A DNA stretch of 15,896 nt from Pseudomonadota bacterium (lineage in GTDB: Bacteria > Pseudomonadota > Alphaproteobacteria > UBA8366 > JADFVY01). The notes below the pieces were generated by a model. The model saw only the letters and a program-made list of their open reading frames with translations, was not told the origin of the DNA and ran no database searches. Where the stretch lies: NCBI GenBank assembly GCA_030671915.1, contig DAOVHN010000009.1, positions 1 through 15,896 on the forward strand, in the 5' to 3' direction. How positions within the stretch are numbered: the stretch's first letter is position 1; every line of letters begins with the position of its first letter. Made by a program: the position numbers and the translations under genes. Positions 233 through 4,104 of this stretch are shown piece after piece.

Positions 233-946
233 TCAGATTGTACCCGCTTTGCGCACCACGGGCGGGCCTTCACCTGCCGCCCTGGCCTCGACTTCACCAC
301 CCTCGCCGATCTCCAGCACCGGCCCGTCCGCGGCCGCGGCGTCATCGGGATCGTGGGTCACCAGCAGCGTCGGCAATCCGCGCTCCGTGGCGTGATCGAA
401 GACGAAGCGGCGAACGCGGTCGCGCAAGGCGGCGTCAAGTTTCGAGAAGGGCTCGTCCAGCAGCAGCGCCTTTGGTTCGGCAAGCAGGGTGCGCATCAGC
501 GCGATCCTGGCCCGTTGCCCGCCCGACAGGGTCGCCGGGTCACGGTCCTCGAAGCCGGGTAATTCGGCCTCGGCCAGCGCATCGGCAACGCGCTTGCGGC
601 GTTCCTCGCGGCCCACGCCACGCGGGATGCCGAAGGCCAGGTTTTCGCCAACCGACAGATGCGGGAACAACAGATCGTCCTGAAACAGGATACCGACGCG
701 TCGCGCCTCCGGCACCGTTCCGGTGATGTCATGGCCGTCCAGTTCGATGCGGCCCTCTATCGCGAAGGCCGGGTCGACCGAACCGCAGATCCAGGACAGC
801 AGCGTCGACTTGCCGGACCCGCTGGGGCCCATGACCGTCGCCACCTCGCCGGGCGCCACGTCAAGCGACAAGCCCGCGATCAAGGGCTGGCCGTCCAGCG
901 AAACGGTCACGCCGCGCAATCGCAATGCACCATCGCTAGTACCCAC
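233..946 (-). CDS. ynjD: ABC transporter ATP-binding protein, YnjD-like
   Basis: 237-residue ATPase of an ABC importer. Visible motifs are Walker A GPSGSGKST (residues 40-48), Q-loop Gln89 (ILFQDD), signature LSGGQ (140-144), Walker B ALLLDEP (160-166), D-loop SKLDAALRD and switch His198. The length is normal for importer ATPases. It follows a fused double permease and a YnjB-type binding protein on the same strand, matching the ynjBCD layout; the substrate of that family is not established (thiamine-like has been suggested from homology). The start used here is GTG at 946-944, preceded by GGAG with an 8-nt spacer. Both lie in the terminal repeat of the element at 940-1201. The original start was probably the ATG at 1209-1207, now cut off by the insertion. 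A TTG at codon 8 is an alternative but has no clear ribosome binding site. Confidence 0.85.
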   Translation of the reverse strand: MGTSDGALRLRGVTVSLDGQPLIAGLSLDVAPGEVATVMGPSGSGKSTLLSWICGSVDPAFAIEGRIELDGHDITGTVPEARRVGILFQDDLLFPHLSVGENLAFGIPRGVGREERRKRVADALAEAELPGFEDRDPATLSGGQRARIALMRTLLAEPKALLLDEPFSKLDAALRDRVRRFVFDHATERGLPTLLVTHDPDDAAAADGPVLEIGEGGEVEARAAGEGPPVVRKAGTI

Positions 947-970
947 TATCGTAACTCCGTGGCACGTGAG
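940..970. repeat. Left terminal inverted repeat of the element
   Basis: Pairs with 1171-1201 at 29 of 31 positions; the only mismatches are at 963-964. Read on the minus strand (outward) it contains CACGGAG, then TTACGATA, then GTG. This is a ribosome binding site and start codon in frame with the downstream ATPase gene. Confidence 0.9.
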
Positions 971-1209
971 ACGGTGTTGCGAGGTCTCCGGTTAGGCGGC
1001 CGGCGCGCCGCGATGCTAGCCGCATCGCAAGCGTCGGGCAACGCGGCCGGAGGCCTCGCAACGCCGCCCGAAGGGTCGTTTTCCGCGCTCCCCCGGTGCG
1101 TCGGGACCGCTCGCCGATGCGCCAGCATCGCCTTCGCGCCCCCCCTTGCCGGGGAAGCGCGGAAAACGATCTCACGCACCACGGAGTTACGATAGTGGGT
1201 ACTAGTCAT
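946..1209 (-). CDS. 87-codon leader ORF created by the element insertion
   Basis: The likely ancestral ATPase start (ATG at 1209-1207, overlapping the permease TGA as ATGA) now reads into the inserted element. It stays open for 87 codons to TAG at 948-946. The product would start MTSTHYRNSVVREIVF and end TELR. It is proline-, arginine- and alanine-rich with no recognisable domain, so it is most likely a by-product. Its stop shares one base with the GTG start of the ATPase gene (TAGTG), an arrangement that favours termination-reinitiation. Whether it is translated is inference; the ATGA overlap with the permease makes coupled initiation plausible. Confidence 0.4.
   Translation of the reverse strand: MTSTHYRNSVVREIVFRASPARGGAKAMLAHRRAVPTHRGSAENDPSGGVARPPAALPDACDAASIAARRPPNRRPRNTVSRATELR
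1171..1201. repeat. Right terminal inverted repeat of the element
   Basis: Inverted copy of 940-970. Read outward on the plus strand it carries the same GGAG, 8-nt spacer and GTG, with TAG overlapping the GTG at 1193-1197. On this side it faces antisense through the permease gene and has no evident coding role. Confidence 0.9.
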
Positions 1210-2898: not shown

Positions 2899-4104
2899 CT
2901 ACGACCCGTAACGCGACAACCAGGTCTTCTCGATCCGGGTCATCCAGCCGGGGTGCGGCTCCGGCAGGGTGAGGCCCAGTTCCTCGGGGGCCAGCGTGGC
3001 GGCGCCGCGCGGCAGTTCGTCGAACAGCTTGCGGCCGGCATCGTCGAGCTTGCCCATCGCCAATACCGTATTGTCGCCCCAATATTCCGGGTTTTCCTTG
3101 CGGGCCTGGGCCTCCGGCGACATCAGGAAATCGGCGACCACCATCGCGCCCTCGCTGGCATTGGCGTTATAGGGGATGGCGACGAAATGGGTGTTGCCGA
3201 TGGTGCCCCTGTCCAGCACGAAGGTCCGGGCGGTCTCGGGCAGCTTGCCCGACGCGATCGCCGAGGAAGCCTCGGCCGGATAGAACGAGATCGCAAAATC
3301 CACCTCGCCGTCGTCGAGCATCTGGATCAGCGCCGGGCCGTTCTTCGGGTAGATCTTGCCCGACCGCCACAGATGCGGCGTCAGTTCGTCCAGCCAGGCC
3401 CAGAGCGGCCCCGTCACCGCGTCGAAATTGTCGCCGGGCGGCTGTTGCAGCACCGCCGGGTCCGCCACCAGTTCGTACAGCGCCTGCTTCAGGAAGGTGG
3501 TGCCGATGAAATCCGGCGGCGCGGGATAGGCGACGCGGCCCGGATTGGCCTTTGCATGGGCCAGGATCGCGGGAATGCCGCGCGGCGGGTTCGCGAGGGT
3601 TGCGCTGTCGTAAACGAAATTGAGCTTGGCCATGCCCCAGGGCGCTTCCAGCCCGTCGGTCGGCACGGTGAAGTCAAGCCGCGTCGTCGGCTTGTTCTCG
3701 ACATCGACATAGCGGAAATTCGGCAGTTGTTCGGCGAAGGGGCCGAACAGCAGGCCCTGGTCCTTCATCGCCTTGAAATTCTCGCCGTTGATCCAGATGA
3801 GGTCGACCGTGCCGCCCTCGTTCCGCCCGGCGGTCTTTTCCGCCAGCACCTTGCGCACCGCCTCGGCCGTGTCGGACAGCTTCACATGGCGCAGCGTGAC
3901 GCCATACTCGGCCTTAACACGTGTCCCCACCCAGGCGATATAGGCGTTGATTCGCTCATCGCCGCCCCAGGCGTTCCAGAACACTTCCTGCCCGTGGGCC
4001 TTGTTTCGGACCTCCTGCCAGTCGAGTTTTTCTTGCGCCCCGGCCGGTAGCGTGAGGGCGAGAACGAAGGCCGCAGCCAGTCCTGCAATCCAACGCATAG
4101 TCAT
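2899..4104 (-). CDS. ynjB: ABC transporter periplasmic substrate-binding protein, YnjB-like
   Basis: 401-residue secreted binding protein. Residues 1-23 are a signal peptide (hydrophobic core, then LPAGA before QEK). The mature protein has the layout of family-1 type solute-binding proteins of the YnjB group, with WNAWGGDERINAYIAWVG near the start and WINGENFKAMKDQGLLFGPF in the first lobe. It delivers an unknown ligand to the YnjC/YnjD pair encoded immediately downstream. Two starts are possible: ATG at 4104 and ATG at 4098. The GAAGGG upstream is 3 nt from the first and 9 nt from the second, so the second is better spaced. No clear promoter was found, though CTGACA (4169-4164, minus) is a possible -35 box. 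Confidence 0.85.
   Translation of the reverse strand: MTMRWIAGLAAAFVLALTLPAGAQEKLDWQEVRNKAHGQEVFWNAWGGDERINAYIAWVGTRVKAEYGVTLRHVKLSDTAEAVRKVLAEKTAGRNEGGTVDLIWINGENFKAMKDQGLLFGPFAEQLPNFRYVDVENKPTTRLDFTVPTDGLEAPWGMAKLNFVYDSATLANPPRGIPAILAHAKANPGRVAYPAPPDFIGTTFLKQALYELVADPAVLQQPPGDNFDAVTGPLWAWLDELTPHLWRSGKIYPKNGPALIQMLDDGEVDFAISFYPAEASSAIASGKLPETARTFVLDRGTIGNTHFVAIPYNANASEGAMVVADFLMSPEAQARKENPEYWGDNTVLAMGKLDDAGRKLFDELPRGAATLAPEELGLTLPEPHPGWMTRIEKTWLSRYGS

What the first reader, a model, noticed from the sequence alone, without database searches (positions are those of the whole stretch)
936..970. Mobile element whose terminal repeat supplies a new ribosome binding site and in-frame start codon
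The insertion cut the ATPase gene away from its ATG (1209-1207). The outward end of the terminal repeat reads CACGGAG, 8-nt spacer, GTG, and that GTG is in frame with the surviving codons ACT AGC GAT GGT. The ATPase is otherwise intact, so the operon seems to have survived an insertion in its second and third codons because the element carries a start signal. Both ends carry the same outward signal, so it would work in either orientation. A repeat family that rescues translation of genes it interrupts would be a distinct role for a MITE.
Basis: partly seen in the sequence, partly recalled or inferred. Interest (0 to 1): 0.75.

Follow-up and report, generated by a model that had tools for sequence, protein, structure and literature searches.

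The report
Mobile repeat supplying genes' start codons
A small mobile DNA repeat that landed just after the start codon of a transporter gene carries its own ribosome-binding site and start codon in the right frame, and related copies sit at the starts of other bacterial genes, two more of which had likewise lost their original start.

Summary
Window 939-1202 is a 264-bp hairpin element, flanked by TA inside CTAG, that separates an ABC-transporter ATPase from its ATG (1209-1207). Its end reads GGAG, 8 nt, GTG (946-944), in frame with the ATPase. Five relatives show the uninterrupted ATGA junction. This end type (T1) was found at five loci in the family's seven held genomes. At all five the GTG is in frame with the downstream gene. 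At three (this ATPase, a membrane protein, purK) the native ATG is cut off at the same position, ATGNN|TA; for purK a relative carries the exact empty site. A commoner sister end (T2), without the signal, shows none in 29 paired insertions. In the three severed cases the old ATG reads an open frame through the insert and stops beside the new GTG (stop codon beginning at -2 or +8). That fits translational restart, which may be needed because the element's RNA hairpin pairs the signal. Limits: expression is untested, numbers are small, tests were framed after seeing the data, only T1 ends do this, and a MITE supplying N-terminal codons has a precedent (MITEAba12). Verdict: new variant of a known kind.

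The parts
939..1202 (.). 264-bp T1 element (MITE-like), inverted terminal repeats GTACCCACTATCGTAACTCC
   Evidence: second copy G000:C8 89%
936..939 (.). CTAG junction with TA (937-938), ATPase side
   Evidence: TA duplication is the IS630/Tc1 rule (PMC2170065 passages)
1202..1205 (.). CTAG junction with TA (1203-1204), permease side
955..958 (-). GGAG ribosome-binding-like site in the terminal repeat
   Evidence: 8-nt spacing found by script
944..946 (-). GTG, proposed new start codon of the ATPase
946..1209 (-). 87-codon through-frame from the severed native ATG, ending in TAG (948-946) that overlaps the GTG by one base (TAGTG)
1207..1209 (-). severed native ATG of the ATPase, overlapping the permease stop
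   Evidence: junction in five relatives
233..946 (-). ABC transporter ATPase (YnjD-like; the Ynj name is recalled), ORF intact
   Evidence: PF00005
1206..2891 (-). ABC transporter permease
2899..4104 (-). ABC transporter substrate-binding protein
   Evidence: NF008633, 547 bits
1183..1197 (+). mirror-image outward GGAG...GTG at the other end, facing the permease's 3' end (unused here)

Best explanation
The window holds a non-autonomous IS630-like element (T1) inserted at a TA in the overlap between permease and ATPase genes (ATGACTAG). It removed the ATPase from its ATG, and the inverted repeat supplies a replacement start: GGAG, 8 nt, GTG, in frame [sequence shown; use inferred]. A ribosome that starts at the severed ATG reads an open frame through the element and melts its hairpin. 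It stops at TAG overlapping the GTG and restarts there (termination-reinitiation) [inferred]. The window's T1 end has a stop codon beginning at -2 and at +8 around the GTG in the two other frames and is open in the third, so ribosomes arriving in any frame end beside the start or pass through in frame. T1 copies that severed starts persist because of this [inferred].
For: Five T1 loci (G000 C384, C8, C329, C121; G006 C46), GTG in frame in 5 of 5. Three severed native starts, all at ATGNN|TA: the ATPase (native junction in 5 relatives), the C8 membrane protein (junction without insert in G001; the same site is occupied in G003) and purK in G006 (the exact empty site ATGAGTAGGCGGCTGCCG is present in G005). 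T2 control: 0 of 29 paired insertions at a real ATGNN|TA start; Fisher p 0.0017 for 3 of 5 against 0 of 29, 0.002 if only paired T1 loci, 2 of 2, are used. An in-frame GGAG-type start lies inside the element at 5 of 5 T1 ends facing a gene's 5' side (C8 and C410 counted apart, C329 not in this count), against 1 of 48 T2 ends, p 2e-6. The through-frame is open in all three severed cases (87, 90, 76 codons; stops at -2, +8, +8 from the GTG). Database proteins start MGTS/MGTN (3 of 39 in the C8 family, two of them apparently the G000 and G003 genes themselves) and MIVGTRR/MGTRR (2 of 61 PurK N-termini viewed), the peptides the T1 end predicts. The C8-family residues PEKPKKEP upstream of the next Met are kept in both species with the insert.
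Against: No protein or RNA data. As a free RNA the site is fully paired (unpaired probability 0.00 for GGAG and GTG in the window, C8 and C410; the GTG also in the purK copy), and even with the left part removed the GTG stays mostly paired in C8 and purK. The through-frame peptide is not under protein selection (6 synonymous, 15 nonsynonymous), and an open frame of that length has chance probability 0.18-0.31 per locus. C329 lacks GGAG and keeps its native ATG; C121's native start is unknown. A T1-like copy in another family (G020, L025) lies between converging 3' ends. Some gene calls in the same protein families start further inside (P0011; 6 of 39 in the C8 family). The statistical comparisons were framed after seeing the data.
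Confidence: 0.72

Rival explanations
1. The element donates the start, but initiation is direct on the GGAG...GTG, without coupling to translation from the old ATG.
For: GGAG with 8-nt spacing is a good site on its own; in the purK mini-copy GGAG is largely unpaired.
Against: In the window, C8 and C410 both GGAG and GTG are fully paired in the full-length hairpin; a sigma-70 consensus scan of 850-1300 found no promoter-like site that would start RNA inside the element (other promoter types not covered).
Confidence: 0.2
2. Target preference: T1 elements favour ATGNSTAG-like overlaps and the start signal is incidental; the genes survive by luck or restart downstream.
For: All three severing insertions hit the same offset; IS630 is known to prefer CTAG (title of Tenzen and Ohtsubo 1991 in a reference list).
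Against: Only 3 of 86 CTAG sites in the background sequence have ATGN before them on either strand (one search gave 3 of 87 with part of the window counted twice); T2 uses the same CTAG target without this bias; PurK cannot plausibly start at its next Met without losing the GGGQLG loop (inference).
Confidence: 0.15
3. The ATPase starts at an internal codon (TTG codon 8 or GTG codon 13) or is dying; the in-frame GTG is coincidence.
For: ABC ATPases may tolerate a short N-terminal loss (recalled); one close relative's database entry starts at an internal Met (P0011).
Against: No Shine-Dalgarno-like motif before those codons; ORF intact; P0001, one residue different from the window's protein and representative of a 15-member cluster (other members' N-termini not seen), also begins MGTSDG; the coincidence would have to recur at C8 and purK.
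Confidence: 0.12

Closest known systems
MITEAba12 of Moraxellaceae (PMC6382973, passages read)
   Same: Small non-autonomous inverted-repeat element whose terminal repeat, read outward, gives the first residues (MQQS) of neighbouring genes.
   Different: There outward promoters are stressed, 'ribosome binding' was not found in the main text, and no severed native start is described in the passages read. Here a ribosome-binding-like site and GTG replace a severed start at three operon junctions, with uninterrupted relatives.
Rickettsia palindromic elements and enterobacterial ERIC/RU elements (PMC10969869, PMC2229807, PMC2759123, passages read)
   Same: Small repeats tolerated in genes because they carry open frames.
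   Different: Those are described as in-frame fusions; here the gene is not fused but restarted, and gains one or two residues in place of its first codons.
IS630/Tc1-mariner elements (PMC2170065, passages read)
   Same: TA target duplication, preference for CTAG, inverted ends.
   Different: No parent transposase with these ends was found.
Termination-reinitiation coupling of overlapping genes (PMC6728339, PMC10666635, abstract openings seen in a search listing)
   Same: Stop/start overlap geometry (TAGTG, or a stop beginning 8 nt after the start begins).
   Different: Here the stop and start are brought by a mobile element; coupling itself is not shown.

Membership tests
IS630/Tc1-mariner-type MITE | TA target-site duplication | tested here: met
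   TA on both sides in CTAG; exact empty TA site for the purK copy in G005, where in G006 a second repeat lies beside the T1 remnant
IS630/Tc1-mariner-type MITE | terminal inverted repeats | tested here: met
   22 nt exact, TA included; 51-nt arms 84% complementary
IS630/Tc1-mariner-type MITE | no transposase gene inside | tested here: met
   264 bp is too short for one and no ORF of 80 aa or more is confined to it; the frames crossing it were not searched against families
IS630/Tc1-mariner-type MITE | an autonomous element with the same ends | tested here: not met
   DDE_3 found in 2 of 7 family genomes (one place each in G002 and G006, none in G000), with no T1 or T2 end recognised in those loci. 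Assemblies are fragmented, so it may be missing; the element is called IS630-like by its target only
IS630/Tc1-mariner-type MITE | several copies | tested here: met
   T1 at 5 loci; related core with T2 ends at many loci
Translationally coupled gene pair | stop codon overlapping or next to the downstream start | tested here: met
   TAGTG in the window; stop beginning 8 nt after the GTG begins in C8, C410 and purK
Translationally coupled gene pair | downstream translation depends on upstream translation | not testable with these tools
   needs a reporter
Start-donating MITE (MITEAba12-like) | neighbouring CDS begins inside the terminal repeat | tested here: inconclusive
   sequence and frame fit at 5 loci, and at 3 the native start is gone; initiation itself not shown

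The most novel reading that the evidence does not exclude
The T1 terminal repeat is a portable translation-restart module. It carries a ribosome-binding site and GTG, and stop codons in both other frames beginning 2 nt before or 8 nt after that GTG, so a ribosome arriving in any frame either ends at the new start or passes through in frame. This lets the element insert into tightly overlapping operon genes without killing the downstream gene, and hosts have kept such donated starts in housekeeping genes such as purK, possibly across several species.
Probability: 0.4. Interest if true: 0.78.

Novelty: new variant of a known kind. Interest (0 to 1): 0.62.

Why it matters
Insertions at the 5' end of operon genes are expected to inactivate the gene. 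An element whose ends preserve the upstream stop and replace the downstream start would explain how mobile DNA survives in gene-dense genomes, and how start sites and N-termini are replaced in evolution. It gives a simple reporter test of termination-reinitiation at a transposon end, and a caution for gene callers, which can misplace such starts.

Tried and rejected
Rfam search of 700-1500 gave only hits below the families' gathering scores, the best to a microRNA family, rejected as hairpin chance. Sigma-70 promoter and terminator scan: none, so an internal promoter was not adopted. A protein made from the through-frame was rejected: no codon-position bias and 6 synonymous against 15 nonsynonymous changes between C8 and C410. 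One shared insertion in C8/C410 is not settled: the element differs by 8% while the neighbouring gene has dS 0.63, so either the element is constrained or the site was hit twice; I count it as one locus, except where both are listed. One pattern hit (G005, L188, 2 mismatches) was dropped from the T1 loci: it lies inside a long coding frame. T2 ends as start donors: an ATG or GTG near -29 is in frame at some T2 ends, with an SD-like motif at one (G006 C34), which also has its own start outside. Of the 20 T2 ends whose gene frame is open into the element, 14 have a start with an SD-like motif outside and 6 have an outside start without one, so deeper 5' truncation by T2 cannot be excluded. T2 copies at contig edges were not all fetched, and 9 T2 ends had under 200 bases of flank. 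The T1/T2 comparison was made after seeing the data. One search's mismatch limit missed C329, which was examined by hand. C121's native start could not be checked. Paper searches on bacterial MITEs with start codons, ribosome-binding sites, IS630, reinitiation and palindromic elements showed MITEAba12 as the only start-donation precedent in what I read; most subscription papers are not held.

Full report
What is there. The window is a contig of a fragmented genome (G000, 3.46 Mb, 792 contigs). A three-gene ABC transporter operon runs on the minus strand: substrate-binding protein 2899-4104, permease 1206-2891, ATPase 233-946. A 264-bp inverted-repeat element (939-1202), flanked by TA inside CTAG, lies between permease and ATPase. 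The permease keeps its stop (TGA 1208-1206). The ATPase's ATG (1209-1207) is cut off after five nucleotides (ATGAC), at the TA. The element's end reads, outward, GGAG (958-955), 8 nt, GTG (946-944), GGT ACT AGC GAT GGT, in frame with the ATPase.

The native state. Six of the seven genomes of the family gave the ATPase. In the five relatives (G001, G002, G003, G005, G006) the permease stop and ATPase start overlap as ATGA with no insert; G003 reads ATGACTCGCGATGG against ATGACTAGCGATGG inferred for the empty site here. The insertion is thus seen only in G000 among the held genomes. P0001, one residue different from the window's protein and representative of a 15-member cluster, also begins MGTSDG, so the junction is unlikely to be an assembly accident; of the 60 best N-termini viewed (P0001-P0060) it is the only one beginning MGT.

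Other copies. The exact end (T1) occurs only in this genus among 43 genomes of the order; a three-mismatch hit lies in G006 of the same family. Looser patterns give five loci in the seven family genomes (one further hit, in G005, lies inside a coding frame and was dropped). They are the window (C384); G000 C8, with the same site occupied in G003 C410; G000 C329; G000 C121; and G006 C46. C8: the element follows ATG GC at the TA in the 300-aa gene, whose upstream neighbour ends in the same TAG; GTG GGT ACT AGT CCC GAG is in frame. G001 has this junction uninterrupted, ATGGCTAAAATCCCGGAAAAACCC. C46: a short T1 remnant (about 37 bp), next to a second repeat, separates purE from purK; GTG GGT ACT AGG CGG CTG CCG is in frame, and G005 holds the exact empty site ATGAGTAGGCGGCTGCCGCCCAATTCC. 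The other purK genes seen (G000, G001, G002, G004) also lack the insert. C329: inserted in the last codons of purQ, which now ends in element sequence, and just before purL; GTG GGT ACT AAC CGC ATG AGC is in frame and the native purL ATG is intact; no GGAG here (gene names by eye). C121: a one-ended remnant before a PAS/GGDEF-like gene (name by eye), ATG GTA GTG AGT ACC in frame.

Control. A sister end (T2) on a related core is commoner: 106 of 114 ends enumerated in the fetched loci. Of 48 T2 ends facing outward genes, 28 have an in-frame stop outside the element; 20 are open, 14 of them with an SD-preceded start outside and 6 with an outside start lacking such a motif. 17 T2 ends abut a gene whose stop codon is formed at the junction, 7 a gene whose stop lies in the element. 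None of 29 paired T2 insertions lies at a real ATGNN|TA start; two match by letters only, and by inspection of the flanks neither is a gene start. T1: three of five loci, p = 0.0017; paired loci only, two of two, p = 0.002. In-element GGAG-type start in frame: T1 5 of 5 outward ends (C8 and C410 counted separately, C329 not included), T2 1 of 48, p = 2e-6. GTG in frame at five of five loci has chance 0.004 if frames were random. These tests were framed after seeing the data.

Mechanism. As one RNA the element folds at -197 kcal/mol against -122 for shuffles, and GGAG and GTG have unpaired probability 0.00 in the window, C8 and C410; in the purK remnant GGAG is mostly free but the GTG is paired. 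So simple initiation should be poor. But the severed ATG opens a frame through the insert at all three severed loci: 87 codons ending at TAG that overlaps the GTG by one base (window), 90 codons (C8, C410) and 76 codons (purK), the last two with a stop that begins 8 nt after the GTG begins. The window's T1 end has TAG in each of the two other frames, at -2 and +8 from the GTG, and is open in the GTG frame. A ribosome entering at the old start would melt the stem, stop beside the GTG and could restart. The open frames are each not rare by chance (0.25, 0.31, 0.18), and the peptide is not conserved as protein. This step is inferred.

Persistence. C8-family proteins mostly begin MAK or MAR (26 of 39, one as MMAK); three begin MGTS or MGTN, and six are called from the next Met. 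In the two species with the insert, codons 2-12 differ by 3 synonymous and 1 nonsynonymous change, and the gene has dN 0.15, dS 0.63. The element itself differs by only 8%, so either it is constrained or the site was hit twice. PurK relatives P0161 (MIVGTRR...) and P0164 (MGTRR...) carry the N-terminus a T1 end would give, though their DNA was not seen.

Known relatives. MITEAba12 gives MQQS to neighbouring genes. Reviews describe in-frame fusions for RPE and ERIC-like repeats. The IS630 TA rule is documented. No parent transposase with T1 or T2 ends was found.

Verdict. It is not a property of the wider repeat family, and the idea of MITE-supplied N-termini has a precedent.

Noticed in passing
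G000, G002, G003, G006 loci (T2 ends): T2 elements often sit exactly at a gene's stop (17 of 106 ends), where TA plus the element's first G forms TAG, or just upstream of an intact GGAG-type site: insertion points that spare operon genes.
   Followed up: partly
L010/L130 (G000:C329): An element with a third end type between purQ and purL; purQ now ends in element-encoded residues (...EALVPTIMEG).
   Followed up: partly
window 967-1174 against T2 elements: T1 and T2 elements share a core (about query 32-239, roughly 77-81% identical in most of the longer hits) but have different ends, which suggests exchange of ends between element families.
   Followed up: no
L120, L135, L146, L132: T2 elements of only 51-60 bp made of little more than two terminal repeats.
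   Followed up: no
L180 (G006:C46), between purE and the T1 remnant: A second, different inverted repeat is inserted directly beside the T1 remnant at the purE-purK junction.
   Followed up: partly
L025 (G020): A T1-like element in another family of the order lies between converging gene ends, with a TAG stop at one junction; its end lacks the GTG.
   Followed up: partly
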